Assembly: GCA_947172415.1 (NCBI GenBank)
Contig: OX359189.1
Coordinates: 828,501-892,500, forward strand
Origin: Chondrosia reniformis
Taxonomy: Eukaryota > Porifera > Demospongiae > Chondrillida > Chondrillidae
Length of the DNA stretch: 64,000 bases
Reading direction: 5' to 3'
Below are positions 23,201 to 60,782 of this stretch, one piece after another. A program made the position numbers and the translations under genes. Each line of letters opens with the position of its first letter. Position 1 is the stretch's first letter. A model generated the notes under the pieces. That model saw nothing but the letters and a program-made list of their open reading frames with translations. It did no database searches and was not told where the DNA came from.

Positions 23201-25196
23201 TACTGCTATTGCATGTGCACAAGTACTGCTATTACATGTGCACAAGTACTACTATTACATGTGCACAAGTACTGCTATTACATGTGCACAAGTACTGCTA
23301 TTGCATGTGCACAAGTACTGCTATTACATGTGCACAAGTACTACTATTACATGTGCACAAGTACTGCTATTACATGTGCACAAGTACTGCTATTGCATGT
23401 GCACAAGTACTGCTATTACATGTGCACAAGTACTGCTATTACATGTGCACAAGTACTACTATTACATGTGCACAAGTACTGCTATTACATGTGCACAAGT
23501 ACTGCTATTGCATGTGCACAAGTACTGCTATTACATGTGCACAAGTACTACTATTACATGTGCACAAGTACTGCTATTGCATGTGCACAAGTACTGCTAT
23601 TACATGTGCACAAGTACTGCTATTACATGTGCACAAGTACTGCTATTACATGTGCACAAGTACTGCTATTGCATGTGCACAAGTACTGCTATTACATGTG
23701 CACAAGTACTGCTATTACATGTGCACAAGTACTGCTATTGCATGTGCACAAGTACTGCTATTACATGTGCACAAGTACTGCTATTGCATGTGCACAAGTA
23801 CTGCTATTACATGTGCACAAGTACTGCTATTACATGTGCACAAGTACTGCTATTACATGTGCACAAGTACTGCTATTACATGTGCACAAGTACTGCTATT
23901 ACATGTGCACAAGTACTGCTATTACATGTGCACAAGTACTGCTATTACATGTGCACAAGTACTGCTATTACATGTGCACAAGTACTGCTATTACATGTGC
24001 ACAAGTACTGCTATTACATGTGCACAAGTACTGCTATTACATGTGCACAAGTACTGCTATTGCATGTGCACAAGTACTGCTATTGCATGTGCACAAATAC
24101 TGCTATTACATGTGCACAAGTACTGCTATTACATGTGCACAAATACTGCTATTACATGTGCACAAGTACTGCTATTGCATGTGCACAAATACTGCTATTA
24201 CATGTGCACAAGTACTGCTATTGCATGTGCACAAATACTGCTATTACATGTGCACAAGTACTGCTATTACATGTGCACAAGTACTGCTATTGCATGTGCA
24301 TAAATACTGCTATTGCATGTGCACAAGTACTGCTATTGCATGTGCACAAGTACTGCTATTGCATGTGCACAAGTACTGCTATTACATGTGCACAAGTACT
24401 GCTATTGCATGTGCACAAGTACTGCTATTGCATGTGCACAAGTACTGCTATTACATGTGCACAAGTACTGCTATTGCATGTGCACAAATACTGCTATTAC
24501 ATGTGCACAAGTACTGCTATTGCATGTGCACAAGTACTGCTATTGCATGTGCACAAATACTGCACAGTACAAGCAGTAGATAATTACCGTCTGCATTGTC
24601 TTGTTCTCAAAGGAGATTGAGCCAAAGAGGATGATAGACGAACAGATGAAAATTAAAGGAAGAAACGTAAGTACTACAATGGTTGTGAGCTTGCATTCCA
24701 AATGTACTTGTAAGTACACTTAGCTTGTAATGGTAGTGTACATACGTATATTGTATTATATGTATATTGTATAATAGTATACAGATCAGTTATTATATAA
24801 TATGCTAACAATGACAAATGATCATATTATATATACACATGCACATATAGACGTGTATGTATGTGTATGTATGTGTATGTATGTGTATGTATGTGTATGT
24901 ATGTGTATGTATGTGTATGTATGTGTATGTATGTGTATGTATGTGTATGTATGTGTATGTATGTGTATGTATGTGTATGTATGTGTATGTATGTGTATGT
25001 ATGTGTATGTATGTGTATGTATGTGTATGTGTATGTGTATGTGTGTAATCAATTGAGTTGTGGTTTGGTTATCAATTCAATTGATCACATGCAGGGATTT
25101 AGGAGGTGCCAGTACACCATCAGTGAATTAGATTGTTGGATGGAAGTTGAGACTGTCTCAAGAATGTTACCACCAGTCGTTCGCAGATTATATTGA
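20228..25196 (+). CDS. RMI1: RecQ-mediated genome instability protein 1
   Basis: Nine exons (20228-20332, 20399-20554, 20701-20802, 21053-21178, 21239-21372, 21496-22339, 22482-22526, 24613-24666, 25095-25196) join in phase to 555 residues (human 625). Residues 1-95 form the N-terminal helical domain (RVKEDWLRACL); ~100-220 the OB fold that binds TOP3A (IHAMEYRPL, GPAIEER, VMLKGNLQYRLGIVLLQ, VLGGSVDRL). The middle is Pro-rich and very Asp-rich (NFDFDDLENIDDF). The C-terminal OB fold that binds RMI2 is residues ~430-550 (GDQWSLLILVEDETGSLAV, ILEALIGFSAEYFRK). RMI1 is the scaffold of the BLM-TOP3A-RMI dissolvasome that dissolves double Holliday junctions (family knowledge). Intron 7 carries 2 kb of minisatellite, intron 8 an 8-bp microsatellite. 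Confidence 0.93.
22538..24562. repeat. 23-bp minisatellite, about 88 copies (2 kb), in RMI1 intron 7
   Basis: Unit GTGCACAAGTACTGCTATTACAT with A/G, G/A and C/A variants. It begins a few bases after the exon 7 donor (AGGAAG|GTACAAATG). All three plus frames stay open for 600-740 residues because the unit lacks stops and 23 is coprime to 3; these long ORFs are artefacts. Confidence 0.97.
24853..25047. repeat. (GTATGTAT)n microsatellite, about 22 copies, in RMI1 intron 8
   Basis: Perfect 8-bp array TGTATGTA ending in GTGTATGTGTATGTGTGT, about 50 bp before the last RMI1 exon. Open in several frames on both strands. Confidence 0.97.
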
Positions 25197-40700: not shown

Positions 40701-43700
40701 CGTTAATAGGTATAGTTTGCAAACCAATAGGTGATACTGCGAAGAGGGATATTGTAAGGTGTGATAATATACATATGGTATGCATACATGGATAGCAAAA
40801 GGATTGACACATTTGGTGATGTATAGTCAAGTATCCAGTTTTGTAATCGAATAAGCATATTCAATGCCAGTGTGACATGCTTTTGATGTAAATGATACTA
40901 TCCACAAGAGATAACTCTCTCAATGTATTGGTAACTCTTTGAGAAGCTGATGATATCATCTAATCTAATTCAATGATTATACACAGAAATACATACCTAC
41001 CTACATACTAAATACATGCATTTCATACCAAGGATTCAAAAGATCATGAAAAAGACAAAGATTCCCAGGGTCACTGATGAAGGATCGAATTCCCATAAAC
41101 AGCTGTCTGGCCCAGTAGAGCAAAAGAAGAGAGAAGACTCCTGTATCCTCATCCAAAGCTCTCACCAGATTTAGTTCCCTATGGACTTTTTAATTTATTA
41201 CAGAGTTGGCATATCATGTTGGAATGGTGTATTAGATTATTCATATGTCAATCCATATATATATGTAGTGTAGGGTACTATAGGGAAGATTTCCAGCATA
41301 CGTACATACGTATGTTCATGGTAACGACTCAATCATATCCCCTTTAGTCACATCCGAACTAAAACCTTGATAATTATTTTAGAATTATGTATTTTATAAT
41401 GTATGTACGTACAAATATGCTTACATTGTTCTACACTTGTAATTAGCTTGTTTCTCCTATGTTGCTAGAGGAGAGAAAGTTGCAAGAAGATGAAAGACCA
41501 CTTGTGGTGCAACTGAACTGGTCCAAAGGGGATAGAGACGGCAGATTTGTGTTCAAGCAGGTCACACTACGTGGTGAAGGACCACTCTCTCCATCAGGTC
41601 ACCATTCTAGCCCCAAGAATCCATTTTCATTAAAAGGGAAGAAAGACAAACGAAAGAAGAAAAGATTTTCATCTTCATCTTCCAAATCCTCCCATCACCT
41701 TAAAAAGTCTGATTCTGAATCTGATGATCAGAAGCCGGGATCGCTTGCCAAAGCTATATACAAGGCTGTACCAGATTCACGGTTCACCAGAAGCATATCC
41801 AACCCAGAAGCTGTAATGAGACGACAGCGCCAACAGAAGTTAGTGAAAAAACTACAGTCAATGAGAGGAAAAGATGGCCGACCCGCCTCCGGTGGTACCC
41901 TGAGAGTGTATGCTGGATCACTTGTGCCTGAAGAACCTTATAAGACTCTCTTAGTCAGCAACAAAGCAAATACCTCACAAGTCATAAAGCTAGCACTGGA
42001 TAAATATGGCATACTCCACGAGAACCCTAGTGATTATTGTCTGGTTCAAATGACTGTACCATTGACAGCAAGCCGAAATGTTCATCTTAATGTGATTGGT
42101 GGATGTACAAACCAGCGGATGCTCCGTGAGGAAGAACAACCCCTGGAACTGTTCAATTCTTGGATGGAGGAGAGAAGAGAATCGGTTGTGATATTCCAAC
42201 TACAGAAGAAGAATTCAGTAGAATATCTTCTGCATGGAGATTCAATGGTTGTAGATAGCTCGTTCATGCCTTACCTGGTCGAGGTTTCCTCAGAAGGTCA
42301 AGACTTTTCCAGTGCCAGAAAAATCCACCTAACAATGGATCACAATATTCTCGGAAGCAAACAGCCTTCAACTCCATCTTCACTCAGTCACAACTTTATT
42401 CACGTAAATGGTCCCGAAATCAGACCTCAGCATTGCGACATCTCCAATATAGAGGGTGTCTTCACGATATGCCCTGTTGAGCGTAATTCTGAAATCCGTG
42501 TTAACAACAAAGTAATACGCAAGCACGCCTTTCTTAGTCATAATTACATCATCAAGTTGGGCCGGTACGTATCCTTTCGCTACATCGATCACTTTGCTTC
42601 AAATAGAGTAGCTGCTCTTACTGAAGCTAACTGCGGCGAAACTCATCCAGCTTCAGCTACAGCTGAACTTTTAAACAGCATGTCTGGTGGTGAGAGGGAA
42701 TCACCAGTTTCACCTCAACCTTACAGAGAACGATCTCAAAGTCATTCCGCCCTTGAGGACCATCAGCAGTCCAATAGAAGGTCGTCCAATGAACTGGAAC
42801 ACAAGTTAAGAGCCACACTTTCAGCTGAATTTGATCAAATTGAGAAGAAAGACGTACCTAAAGACGAGGTAATCATTAATGTATTGCACTTGTGCCAATT
42901 AATTAGATTCTGTCCATCACTACTGAAATATTAATCATTGCCTATCCAAATTGCATTATGTAATGTATTAGGATGATATGAGATATGAGTTCTGTTTTCT
43001 TTTTATAAATTGCATATGCAGCTTATATTTATACACAATTATTTCACTGTGTTGATATACAGGTGGTTATAGTTTACTCATTCTCTAATCTGTTACATGA
43101 CCTTTTTGAGCATTTCTAGATATTGTGTAAACTAATTGATAATAAGCATGCCTCAAGATTGTTTGTACAGCAGAAAGCATGTTCTTCTACTAACTGTGTT
43201 GAGGAGAATGCCTGAGTGTCTACAATTGTTGGTATAATGGCCTTAGTTTTTACAACAGGACAATGTTAAGGAATTCACTATCTGACTGATTGTTTCTTTC
43301 TTGTCTGGGAGAAAAAAACTACACGTTTTAATTATGAAAACTGTGGAAATATATACATATTAGTGCCATTTTCGGCTAACATAGTGGTAACATACAAACA
43401 TACTGTGTATGTACATGTAATAAAAATTTAGTTTTTTGGGACTAAAAAATTTGCAAAACTAAAACACAGGAAATTCTCATGAGAATTTACGTAGATAACA
43501 GTTCAGGTCTATATGGTGCAGGATGAAATATGTACAGGAAGTAATATTTTCCATTTCCTGTGTAGTCCATTGGAACTGGTCATGTGAACGCCGTCTCCAT
43601 GCCAGCATTTCCTGTCCAGTTCAACTCACCTCCTGGTACCCTGAAGTCTTGCTCAGAAAGCTTGCTGTCAAGTGATGTCTCTGAAGGAGAACCTCTTCAT

Positions 43701-46700
43701 CTTCCAATGTCTCTTGTCTTTCATCCCACAAAGGAAGGACCTCTCTTGTCCAACATGATTTTGGAATTGAAGTTGAGCACGCTGCAGTTCACATTAGCTC
43801 CGGCCTTCTCCCTCTACATGATTGTGAGATATCACCTGACAGCTGATTTCCAGCCTGGAGCTAATGCTAGCGAACTAAAGAAACATCTCATAGTAATGTT
43901 GAAGAACACTGTCAGCTACCTCAAGAGAGCCATCAAGGTACATGTGTAACCTAGCAACCTGTGTAACCTGGCAACATGTGTTTCCCATATATGCATACAT
44001 ACATATATACTTATATAATATAAGTAGTGCTAAAAGTCAGGTGAATGGAATTTACAGTTTAAAAGCAGGTTCATTATAATTCCTAAATGGTGTGTTTGAT
44101 TATTAATTTTGTGTGTGTCACAGGAAGCTCGAAATACTGTGTCCTTGTTAGCATTCTGGATGGCCAACACTTCAGAATTTCTACACTTCCTCAAACAGGA
44201 TCAGGACATATCTCGACTCACTTACGAGTACGAGAGCCCTCTGACCAATCTCATCCAGAGCTGTTACAAACACTTCTATCTCGGTGTTACCCGGGATCTG
44301 ACCAGTCTCATTCCCGCTCTCTTTGATAGCTCTGAAGAAGTCGATATTGATGATGGTTCATTACCTGAGAGTGAGGATCAACCAATCGGTGTACCTCCGG
44401 ATGTCATTAGCAACAGCTGGACAACAGGTGGAGGAAGTAACTGTGGCACTCCCCATGGTACCCTCACCAAGTACACCTCCTCTACCTCCTCAATGAGTTC
44501 TAGAAACTCACGCAAGTCAAGACGATCCCGCACGACTGTGAATGACATTATGTCAGTCTTGTCATTGTCCCTGTCGACACTGCACAAGAACAACGTCAAC
44601 ATGAGCCTGGCAATGAGATTGTTTTCTCAACTGATCCGCTTTCTAAATGCCAAAATATTCAACATGTTGTTAAGTGAAGCGAAGTACTGCACTCGTTCCT
44701 GGGGACTCAGACTGAGGAAGCGTTTGGAGAGGATTAAGCAGTGGGCAAAGAAACATAGACTGGAAGCAACAACTGACAGATATTTGGCAACTTCACTTCA
44801 GGTAATTGTTGAAAATATGTTTCACACACATATGAGTGCTTCCAGTAGAAATCATAGGTAATTGTACCCCAGCTGGGATTGACCTCATTCCATTAAGCAT
44901 CCGTTAGCCCTTAGGGAAAGCGTGTACAAACTTTGAGCCCAATTTTTATTTTTTATCCTTTTCGTAGAAGATTTCATCAATTAAAAACACCATACCATAT
45001 ACGTACATTTTTACCATATCAAATATTATGGCCATTTTCTCAAAAATATCTGTAACCATTTTTGCAATTTCTACTGGTGGTTCTCACATATATGATCTGC
45101 ACACCTGTATTATGAGACTGAAAATTATTAACAGTAGTTTCTTGCGTAATTTGAACATTCAGCCCTAAAGTCTTCATGACCAATTAACTGTTGCTGAAGT
45201 TGAATAATATTTGCTGATCCCCGTGACCACAACTACTACTTCATAACATTTCTTAGCAACGTTACATATCTCATGCTCTGCATGTGTACGAACGAACATT
45301 ACTGGTAGTTCTGTTCTGACCATCATGTGTGCAGGCTTGTACTCTGTTAAGTTGTTCCAAGTACTATATGGAAGATCTGAAGCATCTGGGACCAATAACA
45401 CACCTGAATTCCCTTCAAATTGATACCCTTATTAAGCAGTACCAGCTAGAGGAGGGAGAGCCACAAATCTCTAAAGATTTTGTGGCAATTTTACAATCAG
45501 ACGTAAAAGCCAAGAGAGATCATGCGTTGATGAGAGACAGAGGAATAATCCCAGTGGAAGAAGAGGGAAACTTTAATGTGTTGACTAGCTTCATATTACC
45601 TGAGTTTGGCTACATTGGACAGGCTGTCAAGGGAATTCCCCCTGGACTAGAAGACTTTTTAAGACCATTCATTAGTATAGGTTTGTTTAGAGCGAAATGA
45701 AGATTTGTGTAAGAGTGTGTCAATATATTTTCCATCTTCTTTTATGTTTAGGCTTGTGTAAGGTTGTTCTAAATGTAGAATCTCCGGGTCTGTGGACCTA
45801 TCTACAAGCCAGTTCTCACAATGGTGTGTCTGGACAGGATGAGCTGTGTGCATTGAGACAGGACATGATGTCCAGCCCCGTTCCCCCCGGCAACACTCCA
45901 AGCTGCTCCACTGCAACAGAAAGCGATCCTAGATTACCTCCGATTACTGAAATCACTGTAAAGAAAGTGAAAAACTCTCTTGGCATATCTATTACAGGAG
46001 GAAAGGTGAGCGGATTGTGGCCTTTCCTTCAGCAATTTCCTAGAAATATACTATTGATTAAATTATATTTCCTTAAATGAATTCCTAGAATGTGATTTCT
46101 TTTAACAAACTTCTAGATTGTCCACATACTCAAAATTTACTTATTGATGCTGCCTCAGATATAATGACGTTGAATATATGAGAAAGTAAATGGGTTCCTT
46201 AGGTTCAGATTTATATATATACATAGATATGGGAATAGTTATAAATGAGACCAGGTTTTTAAATTAGGTATTTTTAACAGATATGATTGCTAATTATGTC
46301 AATAAACATTTCTACTTTCAGTATTCGTCTAACAATCATCCCAACTTGGATATTTATGTCAAAAAACTTGTGACTGAGGGAGCAGCTGAGAAGGATGGGC
46401 GTCTTCAGCCTGGAGACCAGATATTGGGCGTGGACAACCAATCTCTCCAGGGACTTACTCAAGAACAGTAAGTACATAAAAATGTAACCCAAGGTCTGCA
46501 TTTCACACAGCAAAGCAATCCCAAGTTTTTATAAGTGCATTAGTATGGTCAGGTAAAATACTGTACTGATATATCATATGTGCTCTGATTACCAGCTGCT
46601 TCAGATATATTATATGAAATCACCACTAATTAGTGTGAATTGGGACTAATTTACTTTATCTATTGGTAGTATAAGAGGGGAGCACTGGTGGTCATAACCA

Positions 46701-49387
46701 AATGTCCTTGGGTTCAATTCCCAGCATTTTTTCATTTTGTTTTTCCCTCTTTACTTCCATGATGTTTGGCCAACCAACTCTACTGTACTTTATGTACGTA
46801 TATATGTATACACAGTGCTGCACAAATATTGAAGAACACTGGAGATACGGTGAAACTTACCATAGCACAGCAGGCTGCCCAGTACTATGGACTGACCCAC
46901 TTAATCAACCAGCCCTCCCCGGCTCATGCCCGGAAAAACAACACAGAATACACTCAAGGTTCATTAGCACTCTCATTTTAAAGATATACGTATTGCACTG
47001 TATTGTATTGTTTGCCCCTCCAAAATAGGCCTGAAATAGGAATGTCATTGTATTAGTTTCATTGTATGTATGTAGATCCCAAGCCATCCCAAACTGCAAA
47101 GTTGGTTAAGAAGAAGATGCAGAACCTTCAACCCAAGCAGCTCTATTCAACAAATGTTTCCTTACAAGGTAGGAATCTGACAGAATCTCACTCTAATGGA
47201 GACGTCCAGCGAGAAAGCCAAGCTCCAATGACACACCTTTTTCACAATGGTGTGTCCTATGAACCTTCCAGCAGGCAAGAAGAAGGTAAACCTTCACAAC
47301 TTGTGATACCAAGCAGTCCTTACTCAGAATCAACAAGTATCTTTCAACAATTCACTCAAGAAGAACCCACAAGAGATTGTCCATCTATAGACTTGGAAAA
47401 GACAGCAGACAGTGGCTTCACTAGAGACGGCGACCATATTGGCTTTAGCTTCCTGACCCACGATACCCAGCAGCTGTCTTCACAACCACAACCTAGCAAC
47501 CACCCTCAAGCTCCAGCTCAACCCAATTATGATCCATTGAGCATGGATGTCCAGCACCCTTCTCTAGCGAGCAGTTCCGTGCCAACAGCCATGTCTGTGA
47601 TCCAAAGGTATGAGAGCCCTGTAAGATCAAAAGAAGAAGCACTGTCACCTGTACCAGCTGGAAACCCGGTAGCTAGGCAACAGAGGAACTTAGATACATT
47701 AAGAGGCATGGCTAAAGAATATAAATCTGAGTTAGCCATCTTCGAAGATCAGCGTTCAGAGGAGGAAAGACGCAGAGAACAGCTTGAAATGGAGTTTCAA
47801 AGTGTAGACTTCCAAGGACCTGTAGGACCAAGAGATGAAATGACTACACAAAAGTACAAAAAGAGGCAATTGAAGGAGTTAGAAGAAAAGAGAAGAAATA
47901 GCAATGAACGCTTAAAAGACATTGAAGTAAAATTGCACAACAAAAGAACCAGGCTTCAGGGCATTGAACATCAGATTAAGATGATTGAATTGTCTTTGGA
48001 TGCAGAAGAATCTGAACGAAAGATTGAAGAACTAAACAATAATGATTATGGCACAAAGGAGAAACTGGAGGAGCAGCCGTCTAATAAGCCGGAGAGAAAA
48101 GAAATTTCAAATAAGAGAGAAGGAGAGACAAGGGCCATTTCTCAGAAAGGCAGAGAAGCAAAGGTGATAGCTTCACCTGTTGTGAAAGAGCTTCCTGTTA
48201 CTGACAGCTTGACCGCTCATCAGAGACAAGTTAATGAGAGTTCCATCGGACACCAGAAGGACCAGCAACACACAAGACATCGGAATGGATCTAGTGATTC
48301 TTCTCCAAAAAGTGGAAGACATGGAAGTGCTAGTAGCGAAGGGCATCGATCACTAGAGAGACACAGAAATGGTCCTATCCGAAATGACCTACCAATGTTA
48401 TCTATTCCTAAGAACCCTGAAGCTGACCCATCTCAAGTTAGACGAAGCCCCAACAAAAGACAAATGGAGGAAATTCGTTACCCAGGCAACCACAATATGC
48501 AAGCTGGAGTAGGAGAATGGACCCACACTCATCAAAGAATGGAGCAAGGAAGAAAGAACTTCAAACCTTCATCCTCAAGTGACAGTGCTGGTCTGTTGGA
48601 ATTTAAAGAGGAGCAATTCTCTAGAGTTCGTGTATATAATTTAAGTCCCACTTCAGAGTCAGATTTTTCAGATTATCCACGGCCCCCTCCCCCTGGGGTA
48701 GACTGGCAGAACCAACCACAATCAGGATCTAATCCAAAGCATGACACTAATCTGAAGAAGTGGAATGAACTGAAATTTAGGAAACAAGGCAAGCCAAATA
48801 AGGAAGTTCTCTCACCTCGTGGACCCTTCAGTCCCGGAGGAAAACAATTCAGTCCTTCAAACCAGCAGGAAATGGCTTTCAGGTTCCATAAGAATGTGCC
48901 TCACTACCAACATTACAACATGGAGGGAGACCACAGAGGTCTGGCTCAACCAGACTCATACTTCACAAAGGGAAATCTTCAGTTCCACCAACCTTTGCTC
49001 TCTTCACAAGAAATAACTTCTTCCCAAGTGACAAGTTACCCAGACGACATGGCGACACCTGATCCTTATAATAGTGAGCATGTCACTTCTGAAACCACTC
49101 GTGATAGTGAACCGGTCAATTTGGCTCAGGAAGAATCTGCAGATGAGTTGACTCACCACAAGAGCAGCTTTGAGATCACTAGTCCTCGTGTCGTCCCGGT
49201 GACACGAGGACCACCGCAGTCACACCACAATCAACGCTCACGACAGAACTACCCAGCTAAGAAGCCTCCCCCTCCCTCCTCCAAGCCGAAGCAAGGTGGA
49301 CGTAAGGGCAATCCTATGAGTTACCGAGAGAAAATGGACTTTCTAATGAACTACAAGGGTACAACTGTATCAAAAACAGATTTGTAA
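34770..49387 (+). CDS. AFDN: Afadin (canoe), junctional scaffold
   Basis: Ten exons (34770-34898, 35027-35219, 41469-42868, 43566-43937, 44124-44801, 45335-45680, 45752-46005, 46322-46467, 46816-46958, 47076-49387) join in phase to ~1,990 residues. Domains: first Ras-association domain in exons 1-2 (RWNEHRLDLFEISLPNE, FRPDMRMLGSSYALYEVH), second RA ~248-340 (GGTLRVYAGSL), FHA-like region ~390-500 (PQHCDISNIEGVFTICP), DIL domain ~575-1080 (SLLAFWMANTSEFLHFLKQD, FLNAKIFNMLL), PDZ ~1104-1200 (NSLGISITGGK, GRLQPGDQILGVDNQSL), coiled coil ~1424-1545, and a Ser/Pro-rich tail that binds actin in the family. Afadin links nectins and Rap1 to F-actin at adherens junctions (family knowledge). All eight exon phases between the first and last exon fit. 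Confidence 0.95.
36535..36700 (+). repeat. Dispersed ~150-bp repeat family, copy 4
   Basis: Near full length: AGCCTATAGGGGAACTAAAC, GAGAGCTTTGGATAAAGATAC, CT-rich tract, GACAGCTGTTCTGGGAATTCC, TTCATCAGTGATCCTGGGAG, TTTTTGTCTTTTT. Confidence 0.75.
39590..39875. repeat. 53-bp minisatellite, about 5 copies, in afadin intron 2
   Basis: Unit begins ACATTGACCTATATATCTTC and continues with a half-similar ATACATTGATCCTATACATAC, suggesting an older two-part unit. Confidence 0.9.
41045..41200 (-). repeat. Dispersed ~150-bp repeat family, copy 5 (reverse)
   Basis: Reverse orientation, near full length: AAAAGACAAAGATTCCCAGG, GTCACTGATGAAGGATCGAA, ACAGCTGTCTGGCCCAG, CTGTATCCTCATCCAAAGCT, TTAGTTCCCTATGGAC. 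Confidence 0.75.
46655..46732 (+). repeat. Possible tRNA-derived element (B box plus T-run) in an afadin intron
   Basis: GGGTTCAATTCCC at 46710-46722 fits the Pol III B box / T-arm and is followed by TTTTTT at 46727-46732. A weak A-box-like TTGGTAGTATAAGAGG lies about 50 bp upstream. No full cloverleaf is visible, so this is more likely a decayed tRNA-derived SINE than a tRNA gene. Confidence 0.3.
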
Positions 49388-49740
49388 TTCCCCTTACACA
49401 AATATATAATATAGCTTAAGTGTACATTGCTTTATCTTATAACTGTACAAAAATATTAACTTTCTTGTGCACACGATTTAAGTACAAGGGACAACATTGA
49501 TCATGATCAGTGCATAATTTTGTTTGAGAAGCAGCCAGTTATACACTCTGCAATGATCATGGAATAAATTAAGACCCATCTGGAAAATGTATAACAAGGG
49601 TCTATATATGAATTCAAAACATGCATATTCAAGGCAGTGATCATATACATGCGATACTAGCTGGAGTATTGTATGTGGTTAAGATTATGCTGTTAAATAA
49701 TGTATATTATGTTTTGTCCATCATACAGGCTCCATCTTTA
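49388..49740 (+). terminator. Afadin 3' region and upstream region of the next gene
   Basis: AATAAA at 49563-49568, about 175 nt after the afadin stop, is the likely poly(A) signal. The remaining ~170 bp precede the predicted ATG at 49741. An acceptor-like CATCATACAG| at about 49730 leaves open that 49741 is not the first exon of the next gene. Confidence 0.5.
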
Positions 49741-52700
49741 ATGTCACGCGTACGATACTGCCCTGTCGACAACTTTCGAAATGACAGTTCAATTGCCTCC
49801 TCCATGCTCCGCGCACATGCAGCCATATCCAAACTGTTACGCAATATCTCATGGCAAAACTTAATTGATGTGTCTACGGTCGCAGATCGACTCCGCCCCT
49901 TGTGCTACGGTTTTGGGCGCTCCGTCTTTTCCAGGGAAGCCGGGGCGGGCAGGGTCGAAGGAACCATGTCCAGTGACAGAAAATTCAGTAAGTTTTCCTG
50001 CAAGAGTGCATCAGTCTATCGTAGATGAGACTCGGTGTCATTGTGGTGTTGATAGTTAACATGCAACTGGCTTACCATTGAGCAACAACAACATTAAATC
50101 TTTGAAATAGGACATTTCAACTGTAGGCCTTCTTCAGAAATAAGCATATGATGTCATATATACTGTATATATGTAGACTTTGAGAGTGATTCCGACGATG
50201 ATATCAATTATCACTGTCCTATGTTAATGGCAGATTCTGAAGATATCAGTCTGATAAAGCACTCAACGGACCTTCGAAATCTAGAAGGAACAATGTCCAG
50301 TGATAGAAACGTCATTGGTCCTAGTAAGTTTGGTATCTCATAATTCATTGACACTTAGGGATAATTAGTCAATTCACTAATTTCAAAGCACTTTCAAAAT
50401 GAATCACACAAATGCCACCTCAAAAGGCTTAATAAACATCATTAATTTGAGAATCATTTAACGATAGAGTTTTCCTGCAAGAGTGCATCAGTCTATCGTA
50501 GATGAGACTCGGTGTCATTGTGGTATTGATAGTTAACATGCAACTGGCTTTGAGCAACAGCAACATTAAATCTTTGAAATAGGACATTTCAACCGTAGGC
50601 CTTCTTTAGCAATAAGCATATGATGTCATATATACTGTATATATGTAGACTTTGAGAATGATTCTGACGATGGTATTGACCCACGCAGAACAACAAGGTT
50701 TTGCGCAAAGAGAGTTGGTCAATTTATCACAATTAGAACTCTTCCCGCAGTGAACTATCGCATGTCAAGAGACGAAAATGCGTTGCTTTCGGCCACGGTG
50801 CTGGTAGGAACCATGTCCAGTGATAGAAATGTCATTGGTCTTAGTAAGTTTGGTATCTCACAATTCATTGCAACTTAGGGATAATTAGTCAATTCACTAA
50901 TTTCAAAGCACTTTCAAAATGAATCACACAAATGCCACCTCAAAAGGCTTAATAAACATCATTAATTTGAGAATCATTTAACAGTAGAGTTTTCCTGCAA
51001 GAGTGCATCTGTCTATCGTAGATGAGACTCGGTGTCATTGTGGTATTGATAGTTAACATGTAACTGGCTTAACATTGAGCAACAGCAACATTAAATCTTT
51101 GAAATAGGACATTTCAACCGTAGGCCTTCTTCAGAAATAAGCATATGATGTCATATATACTGTATATATGTAGTTCTTGAGGATGATTCCGACAATGATA
51201 TCGATTATCATTGTCGTATATCAATGTCTGATTCTGAAGATATCAATCTGTTAAAGCACTCAACGGACCTTCCGAATCTGGAAGGAACAATATCCAGTGA
51301 TAGAAACGTCATTGGTCCTAGTAAGTTTGGTATCTCACAATTCATTGCAACTTAGGGATAATTAGTCAACTCACTAATTTCAAAGCACTTTCAAAATGAA
51401 TCATACAAATGCCACCTCAAAAGGCTTAATAAACATCATTAATTTGAGAATCATTTAACGATAGAGTTTTCCTGCAAGAGTGCATCAGTCTATCGTAGAT
51501 GAGACTCGGTGTCATTGTGGTATTGATAGTTAACATGCAACTGGCTTTGAGCAACAGCAACATTAAATCTTTGAAATAGGACATTTCAACCGTAGGCCTT
51601 CTTCAGAAATAAGCATATGATGTCATATATACTGTATATATGTAGTTCTTGAGGATGATTCCGACAATGGTATCGATTATCATTGTCGTATATCAATGTC
51701 TGATTCTGAAGATATCAATCTGTTAAAGCACTCAACGGACCTTCCGAATCTGGAAGGAACAATATCCAGTGATAGAAACGTCATTGGTCCTAGTAAGTTT
51801 GGTATCTCACAATTCATTGCAACTTAGGGATAATTAGTCAACTCACTAATTTCAAAGCACTTTCAAAATGAATCACACAAATGCCACCTCAAAAGGCTTA
51901 ATAAACATCATTAATTTGAGAATCATTTAACGATAGAGTTTTCCTGCAAGAGTGCATCAGTCTATCGTAGATGAGACTCGGTGTCATTGTGGTATTGATA
52001 GTTAACATGCAACTGGCTTTGAGCAACAGCAACATTAAATCTTTGAAATAGGACATTTCAACCGTAGGCCTTCTTCAGAAATAAGCATATGATGTCATAT
52101 ATACTGTATATATGTAGTTCTTGAGAATGATTCCGACAATGGTATCGATTATCATTGTCGTATATCAATGTCTGATTCTGAAGATATCAATCTGTTAAAG
52201 CACTCAACGGACCTTCCGAATCTGGAAGGAACAATATCCAGTGATAGAAACGTCATTGGTCCTAGTAAGTTTGGTATCTCACAATTCATTGCAACTTAGG
52301 GATAATTAGTCAACTCACTAATTTCAAAGCACTTTCAAAATGAATCACACAAATGCCACCTCAAAAGGCTTAATAAACATCATTAATTTGAGAATCATTT
52401 AACGATAGAGTTTTCCTGCAAGAGTGCATCAGTCTATCGTAGATGAGACTCGGTGTCATTGTGGTATTGATAGTTAACATGCAACTGGCTTTGAGCAACA
52501 GCAACATTAAATCTTTGAAATAGGACATTTCAACCGTAGGCCTTCTTTAGCAATAAGCATATGATGTCATATATACTGTATATATGTAGACTTTGAGAGT
52601 GATTCCGACGATGATATCAATTATCACTGTCCTATGTTAATGGCAGATTCTGAAGATATCAGTCTGATAAAGCACTCAACGGACCTTCGAAATCTAGAAG

Positions 52701-55700
52701 GAACAATGTCCAGTGATAGAAACGTCATTGGTCCTAGTAAGTTTGGTATCTCATAATTCATTGACACTTAGGGATAATTAGTCAATTCACTAATTTCAAA
52801 GCACTTTCAAAATGAATCACACAAATGCCACCTCAAAAGGCTTAATAAACATCATTAATTTGAGAATCATTTAACGATAGAGTTTTCCTGCAAGAGTGCA
52901 TCAGTCTATCGTAGATGAGACTCGGTGTCATTGTGGTATTGATAGTTAACATGCAACTGGCTTTGAGCAACAGCAACATTAAATCTTTGAAATAGGACAT
53001 TTCAACCGTAGGCCTTCTTTAGCAATAAGCATATGATGTCATATATACTGTATATATGTAGACTTTGAGAATGATTCTGACGATGGTATTGACCCACGCA
53101 GAACAACAAGGTTTTGCGCAAAGAGAGTTGGTCAATTTATCACAATTAGAACTCTTCCCGCAGTGAACTATCGCATGTCAAGAGACGAAAATGCGTTGCT
53201 TTCGGCCACGGTGCTGGTAGGAACCATGTCCAGTGATAGAAATGTCATTGGTCTTAGTAAGTTTGGTATCTCACAATTCATTGCAACTTAGGGATAATTA
53301 GTCAATTCACTAATTTCAAAGCACTTTCAAAATGAATCACACAAATGCCACCTCAAAAGGCTTAATAAACATCATTAATTTGAGAATCATTTAACAGTAG
53401 AGTTTTCCTGCAAGAGTGCATCTGTCTATCGTAGATGAGACTCGGTGTCATTGTGGTATTGATAGTTAACATGTAACTGGCTTAACATTGAGCAACAGCA
53501 ACATTAAATCTTTGAAATAGGACATTTCAACCGTAGGCCTTCTTCAGAAATAAGCATATGATGTCATATATACTGTATATATGTAGTTCTTGAGGATGAT
53601 TCCGACAATGGTATCGATTATCATTGTCGTATATCAATGTCTGATTCTGAAGATATCAATCTGTTAAAGCACTCAACGGACCTTCCGAATCTGGAAGGAA
53701 CAATATCCAGTGATAGAAACGTCATTGGTCCTAGTAAGTTTGGTATCTCACAATTCATTGCAACTTAGGGATAATTAGTCAACTCACTAATTTCAAAGCA
53801 CTTTCAAAATGAATCATACAAATGCCACCTCAAAAGGCTTAATAAACATCATTAATTTGAGAATCATTTAACGATAGAGTTTTCCTGCAAGAGTGCATCA
53901 GTCTATCGTAGATGAGACTCGGTGTCATTGTGGTATTGATAGTTAACATGCAACTGGCTTTGAGCAACAGCAACATTAAATCTTTGAAATAGGACATTTC
54001 AACCGTAGGCCTTCTTCAGAAATAAGCATATGATGTCATATATACTGTATATATGTAGTTCTTGAGGATGATTCCGACAATGGTATCGATTATCATTGTC
54101 GTATATCAATGTCTGATTCTGAAGATATCAATCTGTTAAAGCACTCAACGGACCTTCCGAATCTGGAAGGAACAATATCCAGTGATAGAAACGTCATTGG
54201 TCCTAGTAAGTTTGGTATCTCACAATTCATTGCAACTTAGGGATAATTAGTCAACTCACTAATTTCAAAGCACTTTCAAAATGAATCACACAAATGCCAC
54301 CTCAAAAGGCTTAATAAACATCATTAATTTGAGAATCATTTAACGATAGAGTTTTCCTGCAAGAGTGCATCAGTCTATCGTAGATGAGACTCGGTGTCAT
54401 TGTGGTATTGATAGTTAACATGCAACTGGCTTTGAGCAACAGCAACATTAAATCTTTGAAATAGGACATTTCAACCGTAGGCCTTCTTCAGAAATAAGCA
54501 TATGATGTCATATATACTGTATATATGTAGTTCTTGAGAATGATTCCGACAATGGTATCGATTATCATTGTCGTATATCAATGTCTGATTCTGAAGATAT
54601 CAATCTGTTAAAGCACTCAACGGACCTTCCGAATCTGGAAGGAACAATATCCAGTGATAGAAACGTCATTGGTCCTAGTAAGTTTGGTATCTCACAATTC
54701 ATTGCAACTTAGGGATAATTAGTCAACTCACTAATTTCAAAGCACTTTCAAAATGAATCACACAAATGCCACCTCAAAAGGCTTAATAAACATCATTAAT
54801 TTGAGAATCATTTAACGATAGAGTTTTCCTGCAAGAGTGCATCAGTCTATCGTAGATGAGACTCGGTGTCATTGTGGTATTGATAGTTAACATGCAACTG
54901 GCTTTGAGCAACAGCAACATTAAATCTTTGAAATAGGACATTTCAACCGTAGGCCTTCTTTAGCAATAAGCATATGATGTCATATATACTGTATATATGT
55001 AGACTTTGAGAATGATTCTGACAATGGTAGCGATTATCACTGTTCTATGTCAATGGCAGATTCTGAAAATATCAGTCTGATAAAGCACTCAACGGACCTT
55101 CGAAATCTAGAAGGAACAATGTCCAGTGATAGAAACGTCATTGGTTCTAGTAAGTTTGGTATCTCATAATTCATTGCAACTTAGGGATAATTAGTCAATT
55201 CACTAATTTCAAAGCACTTTCAAAATGAATCACACAAATGCCACCTCAAAAGGCTTAATAAACATCATTAATTTGAGAATCATTTAACAGTAGAGTTTTC
55301 CTGCAAGAGTGCATCAGTCTATCGTAGATGAGACTCGGTGTCATTGTGGTATTGATAGTTAACATGCAACTGGCTTTGAGCAACAGCAACATTAAATCTT
55401 TGAAATAGGACATTTCAACCGTAGGCCTTCTTTAGCAATAAGCATATGATGTCATATATACTGTATATATGTAGACTTTGAGAATGATTCTGACAATGGT
55501 ATCGATTATCACTGTTCTATGTCAATGGCAGATTCTGAAAATATCAGTCTGATAAAGCACTCAACGGACCTTCGAAATCTAGAAGGAACAATGTCCAGTG
55601 ATAGAAACGTCATTGGTTCTAGTAAGTTTGGTATCTCATAATTCATTGCAACTTAGGGATAATTAGTCAATTCACTAATTTCAAAGCACTTTCAAAATGA

Positions 55701-58700
55701 ATCACACAAATGCCACCTCAAAAGGCTTAATAAACATCATTAATTTGAGAATCATTTAACGATAGAGTTTTCCTGCAAGAGTGCATCAGTCTATCGTAGA
55801 TGAGACTCGGTGTCATTGTGGTATTGATAGTTAACATGCAACTGGCTTTGAGCAACAGCAACATTAAATCTTTGAAATAGGACATTTCAACCGTAGGCCT
55901 TCTTTAGCAATAAGCATATGATGTCATATATACTGTATATATGTAGACTTTGAGAATGATTCTGACAATGGTATCGATTATCACTGTCCTATGTCAATGG
56001 CAGATTCTGAAGATATCAGTCTGATAAAGCACTCAACGGACCTTCGAAATCTAGAAGGAACAATTACCAGTGATAGAAACTTCATTGGTGCTAGTAAGTT
56101 TGGTATCTCATAATTCATTGCAACTTAGGGATAATTAGTCAATTCACTAATTTCAAATATACAGTATATGCATTCAAATACCTTTAACATTTAATTCTCT
56201 GTCTTCTTTTGCTCTACTGGGCCAGACAGCACTATTTTTGCTTCTACTTATACTTAAACCTTCATCAGTGACCCAGGGAATCTTAATCTTTTGTACATTT
56301 TGGTGCCAAAAGCTTGTTAATTATGTTAATAAAGTTAATTTTGAAATATAATTTATGAAAGGAATGTAGATCAAATTAAATTCATTAGTAATCTGACTTG
56401 TACATGCAGGCAAAACAGTCTCATGCACATCTAGCTGTCCTGTAGATGTGTTGGACACTGAAGATGACATTGTTCTTCATTTTTCATTTTGTAGCCTGTG
56501 CTGTAGCTGATAGCTCTGGCACTCCACTTCACCAAGCTGCCATTGGAGGACATCTTGATACTGTGCTTGCGCTGCTAGAAAATGATTGTCCTGTAGATGT
56601 GTTGGACAGTAAAGGTGAAAGTGTTCTTCATTTTGCAGCCCGTGGAGGAAGTGTTGAAATTGTGAATTTGTTTCATAGCAGAGGTTTAAGTGTAAATGCC
56701 AGAGATAAAAGAGGACAAACTCCTCTTCATGTGGCAGCAGGAGCTGGTAAAACAGAGGCTGTTATTACACTTTTACGCTTAGGTGCTGGTAGTGCTGTTG
56801 TAGCTGATAGCTCTGGCACTCCACTTCACCAAGCTGCCATTGGAGGACATCTTGATACTGTGCTTGCGCTGCTAGAAAATGATTGTCCTGTAGATGTGTT
56901 GGACAGTAAAGGTGAAAGTGTTCTTCATTTTGTAGCCCGTGGAGGAAGTGTTGAAATTGTGAATTTGTTTCATAGCAGAGGTTTAAGTGTAAATGCCAGA
57001 GATAAAAGAGGACAAACTCCTCTTCATGTGGCAGCAGGAGTTGGTAAAACAGAGGTTGTCTCTGAACTTCTCAGATTAAAAGCAGATAAAGCATCTGAAA
57101 GTAAAAATGTTAGGGCTATACATAAACCTATTTTGTATCAGTTTGTAGAAGTTCATGAGGGATTATGTAATCTAGCCAGCAATGAAGCTGGGAGAGATGC
57201 ACTAGATTGCCTTTACAAACTGGTGTATCAAGATCGTCTTGACTATCCAAATAAGGAAGACCTGGAAAAAATCCAATTACAAAATGTCATGTACAACAGC
57301 AAGCCTAGTATGACAGAGATTTCTAAATTTCTTTTTCCAAAATTATGTGAAAGAACTATCAAATCTTGGCAGGCAATTGGCTACTCTCTAGATTTGTGTT
57401 CCTCTGAATTAGATCTCATAAGAGGTAACTGCAGTAGTGATTATGATCGATTCCTAGCAGTGATTCGAAGATGGGTAGAGGAAGGAAAAGATAAAAGATT
57501 GTCAACTTTGTTTGAAGTATTGGCTGACTATGTGAACGAGAGAACCCTATCAGAAATGAAAGAATCATTTCTTAAACGTCTTGTTTCTTCTCAACCTAGT
57601 ATCAATACCAGGGGTGCTTTTGTTTTGCAGGTACATGCATATACGTATAATAAACCATACACTATCACCATCAAGCCATTATACTATGTATACAAATATG
57701 TACGTCTAACCACAACGTATATGCAATGTGTAATAATGTAGTCTAGCATGTACATATATAAGTAATAATTTTGAGTTTTATCTCCAATCTCTGTCTTATT
57801 AGAGATGTCAGGAAGCTTTAGTGGGTCAGGTTTCAAACCTTCACACAATTCAACAAACAACAAGCTGCACTAGAGAGATAGATAGCATTCCTGACAGTAA
57901 GCATTATGCATGTATGTATAAGTCTGAAGTAGTAGGGAATATTTGTTGTGATTACTATGGTATTCAGTACTGAGCATCAGCAACTTATGTTTAACAGGTT
58001 TGGATATTTCAACCTGGAGGTCTTCATCAGCACTTGCTGATTCTCAATTAATCACTGACTACCATGCATTTCATAGGTGTGTGTTAACTGTTATGCAAGA
58101 GTGTGTATATATTTAATAAATTATTGCTTTTTAATTACTAGCTGCAACAAGCATTTACATGCTGTACGTACATAATAATGTACTCCATCTGTGCATGCTG
58201 CTGGAACATAACAATTAATTTTAGCCTTATATACATACAAAATGATTATGCAGGTTTAGGAAATTCTATATAGTTACTGATAGATAAATAATGAACTTAG
58301 CTTTGCAGTGAGCTATACAACAATCATGTCACCAATGTTTTAGTTGGCAAAAGTGAGGGTGATGCCATTGTATATTGAGGATTCTCTGTAAAAAATAGGA
58401 CACACTAATTATTGCATGTGTTAACTTACTGATGTTACCAAGCCTGTTTACTAAGCAATGGAAGAGTTCTGTAATTAAGCCATCAGAGTTATTAAAACTT
58501 GTGGGTCTGCCGCCCCCACATTCAAATTATTTGATCACTTGATGCTTAAGTATCCTTAAATTTTACAAAGAAAAAAGTTAATTGCTTCCCAATAGCCATT
58601 TGCAAATACGTATATTGATGAATTTTATTCATCTGCTTAATATAGGTATTTTTATCTGTAAAAAAACTCAGACATCCCCCAAAAAAGTATATTTGGTGTT

Positions 58701-59094
58701 CACATTATTATATACTGAGAATATGATTATGAGGTAGTACACTAGCTGTATAATGCAGACTGACAAATCATCTTTTTCATAATTTATACTATATGCAGGA
58801 ATACCTACCCAAGTTATTAAAAACTTCCTAAATCAGAAGAAGTTCTTAGATTTGCTAAGGGAATGTGATGTTAGAGGAATAGCTGTAGATTTGTTGAGGA
58901 TGGATGTGATAGATTTAGCAGAAGAAGAATGCATAGGACGTACAAAAGGATTAAAAGAAGCAGCTGATAACCTTTATCTGATACTCCAGAAAGACAAGTC
59001 ATCTTCAAAGCTAGAAGCATTGGCAGAGGCTTTACAGAATGATAGTAGTAAAAAAATTTACCAGGAACTTGCTGCAATGATCAATATTTTTTAG
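49741..59094 (+). CDS. Tandem-exon / ankyrin / Death / CARD-like protein
   Basis: Seventeen exons chain in phase to 1,259 residues. Exon 1 (49741-49987) encodes 82 residues of unknown type. Exons 2-14 are the symmetric array (listed separately). Exon 15 (56495-57630) encodes six ankyrin repeats (SSGTPLHQAAIGGHLDTVL type, ~752-950) and a Death domain (~1035-1130; WQAIGYSLDLCSSELDLI, VIRRWVEEGKDKRLSTLFEVL). Exon 16 (57803-57896) is a linker; exon 17 (58799-59094) a CARD-like helical domain (LLRMDVIDLAEEECI, LYLILQKDKSSSKLEALAEAL) ending at TAG. Death and CARD folds assemble apoptotic and innate-immune signalling complexes, and sponges have many ANK-Death genes (established knowledge); the role here is inference. 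No NACHT, TIR, caspase or kinase domain is seen. Two further exons may follow (59195-59847). Confidence 0.72.
50177..55002 (+). repeat. 2,413-bp higher-order repeat (A-B-A-A-A exon block, two copies)
   Basis: Exon starts 50177, 50649, 51174, 51646 and 52118 recur exactly 2,413 bp later at 52590, 53062, 53587, 54059 and 54531, with matching subtypes and only isolated differences (for example AATGATATC against AATGGTATC). A further A-A-A follows at 55003-56093. The block duplicated as a unit of five exons. Confidence 0.92.
50177..56093 (+). repeat. Array of 13 tandem symmetric exons (472-bp unit)
   Basis: Type A exons (147 nt, 49 codons) are at 50177-50323, 51174-51320, 51646-51792, 52118-52264, 52590-52736, 53587-53733, 54059-54205, 54531-54677, 55003-55149, 55475-55621 and 55947-56093. 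Type B exons (195 nt) are at 50649-50843 and 53062-53256. All are phase 1-1, so any subset keeps frame. Type A reads FESDSDDD.. or LEDDSDNGIDYH.., then SEDINLLKHSTDL and EGTISSDRNVIGP: acidic, with no recognised fold. Exon starts are 472 bp apart, or 525 after a B exon (48 nt more exon, 5 nt more intron). Intron sequence is as conserved as exon sequence, indicating recent tandem duplication or gene conversion. Confidence 0.93.
56195..56305 (+). repeat. Dispersed ~150-bp repeat family, copy 6 (5' truncated)
   Basis: TCTTCTTTTGCTCTACTGGG, CCAGACAGC, CCTTCATCAGTGACCCAGGG, AATCTTAATCTTTT. It lies in the intron between the exon array and the ankyrin exon, where the array's intron sequence breaks off. 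Confidence 0.7.
56503..57096 (+). repeat. 297-bp in-frame duplication of three ankyrin repeats
   Basis: The block from GTAGCTGATAGCTCTGGC at 56503 recurs at 56800 (297 bp = 99 codons = three 33-residue ankyrin repeats) with a handful of changes (AARGG against VARGG, AGAGKTEAV against AGVGKTEVV). A decayed fragment of the same unit lies upstream at 56427-56494. Confidence 0.93.
57897..58798 (+). other. Intron of the ankyrin/Death gene
   Basis: 902 bp. An exon-like stretch after TTTAACAG| at about 58000 (GGATATTTCAACCTGGAGGTC..) resembles the intron motif GACATTTCAACCGTAGGCC of the exon array and cannot be joined in phase to the next exon. No other feature is seen. Confidence 0.5.
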
Positions 59095-59194
59095 AAAGCC
59101 AAAGTAAGTTGCAATTGTCATGTTTAAGTGTATAGAACACATGCATAGCCTACATTCTTTGAAAAGGGTTTGCTTTTGCAAACTTTTTATATAG

Positions 59195-59847
59195 TCTCTG
59201 GAAACAGAACATCAGATGTCTTTCCAACTAACTTGCCTCAAAAAAGGAATCACAAATTTACACTAGATGGTAAGTAGACCAATTTGTAGACCAACTCAAC
59301 TACTAACTAAAACATACAGCCTGCATGAATAAACATAATTGGGTACATTCTTTGAAAAAGGGTTTGAAGTTAAAGTTCTCTTGCTTATCATATATTTTAG
59401 TGATAAATTGGTTACCAGTGATGTTATAAGTCGAAAAAGGGGGATTTCCTAGGGTTGGAATTTATCTTTTTAAGAATAAGTTCCTTGGGGTAAATGTCAC
59501 TAATTGACAGCGGGTAGAGGAATCACAAAATGCTTCAAATTGCAAAATAAAACTGCAAAATGTTCAATTTTGCATAAAATCGCAAAAATTTCTTCCACAA
59601 ATTTCCCCCATTACACAGTATATACACAGTGAGGAGATTATATATCTATTTCAATGATCATATAAATTTTACATTATATATATGTATGTACTATATATCC
59701 CTTTCAGAAGATGAGCAGTTATGCCATTCAGACAGTGAAGATTGTCCACCAGTAAAGAAGCCAAAGGATGAACAGTTTGAAAGTGTATCTATGAAAAGGA
59801 CACAATCTTCTACTTCTACAACATTGAGGCTTTTGCAATATGCTTAA
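59195..59847 (+). other. Two probable downstream exons (59195-59269 and 59708-59847) of the same gene
   Basis: 59195-59269 (75 nt, acceptor TATAG|, donor |GTAAGT, phase 1-1) and 59708-59847 (acceptor TTTCAG|, stop TAA) join in phase to a 70-residue tail with EDEQLCHSDSEDC, the basic PVKKPK and a Ser/Thr-rich end. They need a phase-1 donor upstream. Exon 17 has a perfect GTAAGT at 59104, but the frame before it hits TAG at 59092. One more T in the six-T run just before TAG would give phase 1. They may be alternative, decayed, or hidden by an indel. Confidence 0.5.
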
Positions 59848-60782
59848 TTAAAGGAACTGTGAATGTATCTATTTATCTTTCTTAAGAATTGATAAATACA
59901 GGTGAATCAATATGACAATAATTAACAATTAATTTTGGCAGGACTTAGATTAAAGGTCCATTGGAGAAAAATACTGCTATACAAATTAATTCTATCTACA
60001 GCAGATGAAACTAAGACAGTATATATCTAAAATTCCTCCAAAGCCAAAAGGAGGTGAACATCCATGTCAATGCGTACAATTTTTATGGAATCATGTGACT
60101 TTGCCAAAACAGTTTAATCAGAAATGATCATGAGTTTTATACCGTAAACTTTATGATAATAATATAATATGCGCATTTTTGCTGGTCCTTTCTTGGAGCC
60201 ATATAAATTAATTATATTATTTATATACATATTAGATTACCTTAGTATATTGTATATAATTGCACTGATGGATCATATATATTTGAATTATGCCTTGCTG
60301 AAATTTGATATAAAGTAAGTTATGAGACTAAAAGATACTGGATTAAAATGCCTGCAATAGCCATACTGACAAGTGCTGAAATGTTTTTTAACTGACTTTA
60401 GTTCTATTTCAAAAGTGGACAGAACTCAGAAGCTTAAAAAGGTAGCTCACCTGGCTGTGGTATTATTCGAACACTACTTATACTTTGTTGATCATCCAAT
60501 ATTGAAATAGGATCCTTTATCTATGAACACCAATGCGCATGCACATATAGCTCTAAAAGCACAAGTAAGATACTGCGCCACAATAACGAAGTTACATTTT
60601 ACGGATGTAGAATATTGCAGCAACAAGGTAAATTATATATGTGCGCAAATTTAAACCTTCGCTTGGAAAGACTGCAACAAAGAATCCTCCGATGGAAAAC
60701 CTATTTCATTGTCCAGTAAAGTCGAAGCCATTTCTGGAGAGTTACGCAATACCGCGCATGGCCAGAAACTGTAATTTTAGGC
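59848..60782. other. Intergenic stretch, nothing recognised
   Basis: AT-rich to about 60400, then more balanced. It contains TTACGCAA at about 60735 (as in the gene promoters here). No ORF over 60 codons, no repeat and no tRNA were seen. Confidence 0.5.

What the first reader, a model, noticed from the sequence alone, without database searches (positions are those of the whole stretch)
49741..59094. Exon-cassette array feeding an ankyrin/Death/CARD-like protein
Thirteen consecutive exons of 147 or 195 nt, all phase 1-1, precede one exon with ankyrin repeats and a Death domain and another with a CARD-like domain. Skipping or choosing any subset preserves the frame, so one gene could give from 0 to 13 copies of an acidic 49-residue module ahead of a death-fold effector. 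Near-identity of exons and introns points to ongoing expansion or gene conversion. Repeated cassettes joined to signalling folds are typical of recognition or immune genes under diversification. I recognise no known family for the cassette.
Basis: partly seen in the sequence, partly recalled or inferred. Interest (0 to 1): 0.92.

Follow-up and report, generated by a model that had tools for sequence, protein, structure and literature searches.

The report
Sponge death-fold gene with cassette array
A sponge gene that ends in signalling domains of the cell-death type carries, at its start, thirteen repeated small coding blocks that could be added or dropped without upsetting the reading frame; the arrangement is real and young, but whether and how it is expressed is not yet known.

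Summary
The array is real: 13 of 13 cassette exons (eleven of 147 nt, two of 195 nt; 50177-56093) have consensus splice sites and phase 1-1. A 17-exon chain, through an ankyrin+Death exon to a CARD-like exon, reads 1,259 residues with no internal stop. The genome fits Chondrosia reniformis odChoReni1.1. Cassette protein matches only inside this array; two protein searches found no relative. A 2,460-bp block is duplicated with one mismatch. Introns are 98-100% alike, but exons fall into diverged types (25/147 versus 9/325 variable sites).

Best reading: a chimeric gene whose 3' half comes from a resident ankyrin-Death-CARD-like family and whose 5' half is a growing coding array, giving an acidic repeat tail of adjustable length. 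It works like LPA KIV-2 or brown-algal LRR exon arrays. Transcription, exon choice and immune function are untested; a two-gene rival remains open.

The parts
49741..49987 (+). Exon 1 (247 nt, ends phase 1). Most of it (to about 49957) matches a transposon-like element on C3; the last 31 nt match the 3' end of the cassettes
   Evidence: open frame; 157/180 identical to C3 element, alignment continues to the element's end; 3' end
50177..50323 (+). Cassette exon 2, type A, 147 nt, phase 1-1
50649..50843 (+). Cassette exon 3, type B, 195 nt, basic core
51174..51320 (+). Cassette exon 4, type C
51646..51792 (+). Cassette exon 5, type C
52118..52264 (+). Cassette exon 6, type C
52590..52736 (+). 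Cassette exon 7, type A, identical to exon 2
   Evidence: second copy of the 2,460-bp block
53062..53256 (+). Cassette exon 8, type B, identical to exon 3
53587..53733 (+). Cassette exon 9, type C
54059..54205 (+). Cassette exon 10, type C
54531..54677 (+). Cassette exon 11, type C, identical to exon 6
55003..55149 (+). Cassette exon 12, type A'
55475..55621 (+). Cassette exon 13, type A'
55947..56093 (+). Cassette exon 14, type A'
56408..56494 (+). Decayed ankyrin coding relic at the end of intron 14; its end forms the acceptor of exon 15
   Evidence: read directly from sequence
56495..57630 (+). Exon 15: about six ankyrin repeats plus Death domain (57334-57564)
   Evidence: Pfam; Death placed at C1:885834-886064
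57803..57896 (+). Exon 16 (94 nt, phase 0 to 1)
   Evidence: phases and splice sites; no relative in the loci held
58799..59094 (+). Exon 17: CARD-like domain, TAG stop
   Evidence: sub-threshold CARD matches; chain ends here
59195..59269 (+). Putative exon 18 (75 nt), open; not in register with exon 17 as assembled
59708..59847 (+). Putative last exon 19, acidic/serine-rich tail, TAA stop

Best explanation
One chimeric death-fold gene of the demosponge Chondrosia reniformis. Its 3' part (exons 15-17) belongs to a resident ankyrin-Death-CARD-like family; joined to it is an unrelated 5' array of frame-neutral cassette exons, headed by an exon made largely of transposon-like sequence. The array grows by tandem duplication of 472-bp units and of a 2.4-kb five-exon block. 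Exchange between units keeps the introns alike, while distinct exon types (A/A', C, B) persist. If all exons are spliced, the protein has 669 residues of cassette sequence, mostly Asp/Ser-rich and acidic, ahead of ankyrin repeats (partner binding) and Death plus CARD-like domains (assembly of a signalling platform). Copy number, and exon skipping if it occurs, would tune the length and valency of this tail without disturbing the frame. Shown: anatomy, phases, block duplication, exon/intron contrast, cassette restricted to this array, cassette-free relatives. Inferred: one transcript, a multivalent and probably unstructured docking tail, and death or immune signalling as output.
For: 17-exon chain with no internal stop; 13 of 13 cassettes with consensus splice sites and equal phase; shuffles rarely open. 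2,460-bp block duplication with one mismatch. Exon versus intron variable sites 25/147 and 9/325, p=1.6e-7. Cassette protein: 11 matches at E<=10, all in this array. Unit DNA: 70 matches, 16 in this array, the other 54 only through the dispersed stretch from query base 397-398 on (40 of 251 candidates scored). Relatives at C5 (two), C11 and C4 show no credible cassette match in the stretches fetched. Exon 1 matches a C3 element with 90-bp inverted repeats. HiFi reads averaged 12.9 kb at about 70x against a 5.9-kb array.
Against: No transcript was available. Each cassette type is open by chance in 2-4% of shuffles, and copies are not independent. dN does not exceed dS between types. Exon 15's acceptor lies in decayed ankyrin sequence, its frame has its own ATG at 56446, and exon 14 read through would stop within about seven codons of its donor, so two separate genes are possible. 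Tail exons are out of register with the CARD-like exon, so part of the gene may be decaying. The CARD assignment is below cut-off, its profile match to NLRC4 CARD (E=0.78) is no better than to ABL1 kinase (E=0.94), and the lone-sequence model has pLDDT 47.
Confidence: 0.53

Rival explanations
1. Two transcription units: the ankyrin-Death-CARD-like gene starts on its own near ATG 56446, and the array upstream is a separate short or dying gene that happens to be in phase.
For: One ORF of 431 codons runs from ATG 56446 through the Death domain. Relatives have no cassettes. If exon 14 were terminal, its frame would stop within about seven codons of the donor. A phase match alone is a one-in-three event.
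Against: That ORF start lies in decayed ankyrin sequence, whereas both C5 relatives and C11 have a further ankyrin-like exon upstream. An acceptor with a T-rich stretch before it sits at 56495, and exon 14 has the same consensus donor as the others.
Confidence: 0.22
2. Alternative first exons: each cassette has its own promoter and is spliced to the constant ankyrin exon, as in chelicerate sDscam.
For: The array lies 5' of a constant region and cassettes contain in-frame ATGs. The sDscam precedent has tandem 5' cassettes with promoters (passages of PMC4835542).
Against: Every cassette has a consensus acceptor. Introns are nearly identical, leaving little to tell promoters apart. The exon frame is open upstream of the ATGs, unlike the stop-before-ATG pattern described for sDscam.
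Confidence: 0.07
3. Non-coding or decaying tandem repeat: a 472-bp satellite-like array with exon-looking segments open by chance, in a window rich in tandem repeats.
For: TRF lists 13 rows in the window, 11 of them elsewhere. dN is about equal to dS between types. Exon 1 is mostly transposon-like.
Against: A consistent open phase in types A, C and B and in exon 1 through to the CARD-like exon. The excess of variable sites begins at the acceptor: 0 of 38 in the intron's last 38 nt, 20 of 78 in the exon's first 78. No stop in any of 7 distinct 147-nt exons despite up to 21 differences.
Confidence: 0.12
4. Assembly artefact: the 2.4-kb block was doubled, so the true number is 8 cassettes.
For: One mismatch in 2,460 bp between block copies.
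Against: HiFi mean read 12.9 kb, about 70x, primary QV 69.8: the array fits in one read. Exons 12-14 differ from the block, so an array of several cassettes remains in any case.
Confidence: 0.06

Closest known systems
Brown-algal LRR-ROCO genes, one exon per repeat (PMC11378527; passages seen)
   Same: Tandem exons of one length and one phase, each a repeat unit, beside a signalling core; intragenic duplication and an immune role are proposed
   Different: There the repeat is a folded LRR, with splice variants and positively selected sites reported. Here the module is an acidic orphan, selection is unproven and no transcript was seen; sponge, with Death/CARD-like domains in place of ROC-COR
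Human LPA KIV-2 coding copy-number repeat (PMC7613587; passages seen)
   Same: Coding tandem array, unit exons 98-100% alike, unit subtypes inside the array
   Different: The LPA unit is about 5.5 kb with two exons of 160 and 182 bp; here 472 bp (525 bp for type B) with one exon. Here exons differ more than introns. Copy-number variation between alleles is not tested here
Chelicerate sDscam tandem 5' cassettes (PMC4835542; passages seen)
   Same: Tandem cassettes 5' of a constant region
   Different: sDscam cassettes are of two or four exons, preceded by promoters, and encode Ig domains; here single exons with ordinary acceptors
Resident ankyrin-Death genes of the same genome (C5:2028225-2031602, C5:2042155-2047602, C4:1108726-1111665, C11:2061861-2068625)
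   Same: Ankyrin repeats then a Death region (36-40% identity); CARD-like exon (40-59%) at both C5 loci and C4
   Different: No credible cassette match in the stretches fetched (in C4 one 19-residue stretch on the other strand at E=0.039). No CARD-like exon found in the 1.9 kb held downstream at C11. C11 and both C5 loci have an ankyrin-like exon upstream instead

Membership tests
Death domain (PF00531) | Pfam score above curated cut-off | tested here: met
   25.8 bits against 22.6. The family profile's best PDB match is the ankyrin-3 Death domain, E=0.012; an unrelated chain (APC9) scores 0.044
CARD (PF00619 / PF16739) | Pfam score above curated cut-off | tested here: not met
   15.0 against 23.9 and 19.3 against 28.2 bits. 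Four relatives scanned, none above cut-off: three with weak CARD matches, one (C5) with none. Hence 'CARD-like' only
CARD (PF00619 / PF16739) | Six-helix death fold | tested here: inconclusive
   Lone-sequence model all-helical but pLDDT 47; profile to PDB: NLRC4 CARD E=0.78, ABL1 kinase E=0.94
NOD-like receptor | NACHT domain with LRRs | tested here: not met
   No NACHT or LRR in Pfam scans of exon 1, a C-type cassette pair, the B cassette, exon 15 and exon 17; type A cassettes and exons 16, 18, 19 were not scanned
Coding copy-number repeat (LPA KIV-2 kind) | Near-identical tandem units that keep the frame | tested here: met
Coding copy-number repeat (LPA KIV-2 kind) | Copy number differs between alleles or individuals | not testable with these tools
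   Alternate haplotype GCA_947172445.1 (named) is not held here
Exon-shuffled receptor arrays (brown-algal kind) | Positive selection on repeat positions | tested here: inconclusive
   Within types 17 nonsynonymous to 1 synonymous, p=0.10; all edges 29 to 7, p=0.56
Exon-shuffled receptor arrays (brown-algal kind) | Alternative splicing of repeat exons | not testable with these tools
   No RNA reads available
sDscam-type 5' cassettes | A promoter before each cassette | not tested
   No promoter scan was made; consensus acceptors on all 13 cassettes speak against it

The most novel reading that the evidence does not exclude
A germline exon-cassette system in which exon cores are exchanged and held diverse while the introns between them are homogenised (unrelated cores A/C, B and a transposon-derived one on the same 3' end), producing individual-specific repeat tails on a death-fold signalling protein: a diversified recognition locus in a sponge.
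Probability: 0.13. Interest if true: 0.85.

Novelty: new variant of a known kind. Interest (0 to 1): 0.5.

Why it matters
If expressed, it is a compact and very young example of a signalling gene gaining a variable repeat tail: a transposon-like first exon, an orphan cassette, a recent block duplication and a death-fold half from another family, all readable in about 10 kb. It makes two questions testable with existing public data: whether sponges carry copy-number-variable coding arrays on death-fold genes, and why exon types stay different while the introns between them stay alike.

Tried and rejected
Protein searches with the cassette: a 343-residue chain (7,990 candidates scored) and an alignment of three cassette pairs (586 candidates) gave nothing at E<=10; both tools see only proteins that share words and fall in a length range. 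The ankyrin-Death search gave 1,417 matches, 120 listed, dominated by generic ankyrin proteins. Pfam on a C-type cassette pair: best E=0.079, below cut-off.

Origin of the 195-nt core from the transposon of exon 1: rejected; the best alignment score was reached by 137 of 300 shuffles on one strand and 16 of 300 on the other. The core has no other copy in the genome at E<=1. An exon at 57998-58076: rejected, it breaks the phase and resembles dispersed-repeat sequence. Intronic RNA as the cause of intron likeness: no Rfam match at E<=1 in 49400-59900, no tRNA in the window.

Short motifs (definitions recalled): an acidic dileucine pattern is kept in 7 of 7 distinct 147-nt exons, but shuffles of two of them hold it in 11% and 20%; a SUMO-interaction-like pattern in 5 of 7 (shuffles 5% and 11%). 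Leads only. Lone-sequence folds of a cassette (pLDDT 60, no secondary structure) and of the CARD-like exon (pLDDT 47) are uninformative. No paper held all of 'Chondrosia reniformis', genome, 'immune genes' and expansion.
Full report
SOURCE. The window is C1:828501-892500 of a 117,379,552-base genome in 15 contigs. I recalled Chondrosia reniformis from the size, then checked it against the genome note (PMC12181767; abstract, sections 5 and 7, and term passages seen): 117.37 Mb, 14 chromosomes plus a mitochondrion. Of six other contig lengths compared (C3, C4, C5, C6, C9, C11), five agree with the table to the printed digits; C4 is 8.954 Mb against 8.96. Sequencing was HiFi, 10.31 Gb in 0.80 million reads, about 70x: a mean of 12.9 kb against a 5.9-kb array.

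OBSERVATION. Thirteen exon-like segments lie at 50177-56093, eleven of 147 nt and two of 195 nt. All 13 follow TATATATGTAG, precede GTAAGTTTGG and are phase 1-1. The 12 introns between them are 325 nt (ten) or 330 nt (two), 97.8-100% identical where lengths agree; exons of equal length are 85.7-100% identical. The 17-exon chain ending at 59094 has 1,260 codons and no stop but the last. My first trial chain included a segment at 57998-58076, which breaks the phase and resembles dispersed-repeat sequence. Shuffles keep the frame open in 49/2000 (A), 85/2000 (C), 41/2000 (B) and 175/2000 (exon 1) cases. The copies are not independent, so coding is likely, not proven.

TYPES AND HISTORY. Exons fall into types A (2, 7), B (3, 8), C (4-6, 9-11) and A' (12-14). 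The order A B C C C is present twice: 50139-52598 and 52552-55011 match over 2,460 bp with one mismatch. In the ten 472-bp units (seven distinct), 25 of 147 exon sites and 9 of 325 intron sites vary (p=1.6e-7): 20 of 78 in the first part of the exon, 5 of 69 in the rest, then 5 of 85, 4 of 202 and, just before the next acceptor, 0 of 38. Between A and C, synonymous (0.17) and nonsynonymous (0.12-0.13) divergence both far exceed that of the introns (0.012-0.018). This points to introns homogenised by exchange while exon types persist, rather than to plain positive selection. Within types there are 17 nonsynonymous to 1 synonymous changes (p=0.10); over all edges 29 to 7 (p=0.56). For A against A', nonsynonymous divergence exceeds intron divergence (8/118 against 2/325, p=0.0006) but not synonymous divergence (p=0.69). 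Type B keeps the ends of type A around an unrelated core of net charge +6.

EXON 1. Its last 31 nt match the 3' end of the cassettes, and intron 1 matches the 3' part of the array introns (95%). The rest matches a 642-bp element on C3 with 90-bp perfect inverted repeats: 157 of 180 bases identical, with the alignment running on to the element's end sequence. The other strand of that element encodes a fragment with a DEAD-helicase match (E=2.3e-6). The exon-1 region has two matches in the genome, itself and C3; terminal-repeat relatives lie on C14 and C2. The 82-residue N-terminus is best read as exonised transposon-like sequence on a truncated cassette.

THE 3' HALF. Exon 15 holds about six ankyrin repeats and a Death domain above cut-off, with a 297-bp internal duplication at 98%. 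Relatives are at C5 (two), C11 and C4; both C5 loci and C4 also have the CARD-like exon, while none was found in the 1.9 kb held downstream at C11. The stretches fetched hold no cassette match, apart from a 19-residue stretch on the other strand at C4 (E=0.039). Exon 15's acceptor lies in decayed ankyrin sequence (56408-56494). Its frame is also open from an ATG at 56446, and exon 14 read through would stop within about seven codons of the donor, so a two-gene rival is kept; that last fact, seen in checking, moved a little weight from my best reading to the rival. The CARD-like exon is below Pfam cut-offs; its profile matches the NLRC4 CARD at E=0.78 and ABL1 kinase at E=0.94, so this test decides nothing. 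The genome search listed 150 similar places, this exon included (150 of 287 candidates scored). After this exon, two relatives (L055, L057) have a GTAAG donor-like site and two (L056, L044) run to a stop. In the window two further open exons follow (59195-59269, 59708-59847), in phase with each other but not in register with the CARD-like exon, which ends at a TAG after a run of T.

MECHANISM. Shown: anatomy, phases, block duplication, exon/intron contrast, module restricted to this array (11 of 11 protein matches), cassette-free relatives. Inferred: a single transcript; a 669-residue mostly acidic repeat tail of variable length in front of ankyrin, Death and CARD-like domains; assembly-type signalling. 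The lone-sequence cassette model has no secondary structure at pLDDT 60, which is compatible with disorder but is not evidence for it.

COMPARISON. It works like brown-algal ROCO LRR exon arrays (PMC11378527, passages) and the LPA KIV-2 coding repeat (PMC7613587, passages). Chelicerate sDscam 5' cassettes (PMC4835542, passages) are nearer in position but are preceded by promoters. Sponges are rich in Death genes: 142 matches here (150 of 220 candidates scored) and 128 DEATH genes in Dysidea avara (abstract passage of PMC12909245; its text does not hold 'ankyrin' or 'Chondrosia'). No NACHT or LRR was found in the five pieces scanned. I saw no description of this locus in the listings; most were general term searches, so absence from print is not shown.

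VERDICT. A real, young, well-formed cassette array with an orphan module, in phase with a death-fold half: a new variant of a known kind. The bold immune reading is possible but untested.

Noticed in passing
window 59195-59847: Two open, phase-compatible exons beyond the CARD-like stop encode an acidic/serine-rich tail; not in register with the CARD-like exon as assembled.
   Followed up: partly
array introns, e.g. window about 51547-51612; also about 57998-58040: A ~66-nt stretch of each array intron matches a dispersed repeat that often occurs in inverted pairs elsewhere (looks like one arm of a MITE); resembling sequence lies in the intron after exon 16.
   Followed up: partly
window 2261-39877: Eleven tandem-repeat rows besides the cassette array and the ankyrin duplication, including an 88-copy 23-bp array at 22540-24563 overlapped by long ORFs in three frames.
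   Followed up: no
window 41459-49387: The upstream neighbour looks like afadin (recalled from its ORF text, not searched); its last long ORF stops 353 bases before exon 1.
   Followed up: no
G000 C6:6698658-6707888: An open frame of 3,533 codons holding many ankyrin repeats related to exon 15.
   Followed up: no
L041:4671-5312 (C3): A 642-bp element with 90-bp perfect inverted repeats carrying a helicase fragment in two frames; terminal-repeat relatives only on C14 and C2 among the matches returned.
   Followed up: partly
window 56502-57059: The ankyrin part of exon 15 is itself a recent 297-bp tandem duplication (1.9 copies, 98%).
   Followed up: no
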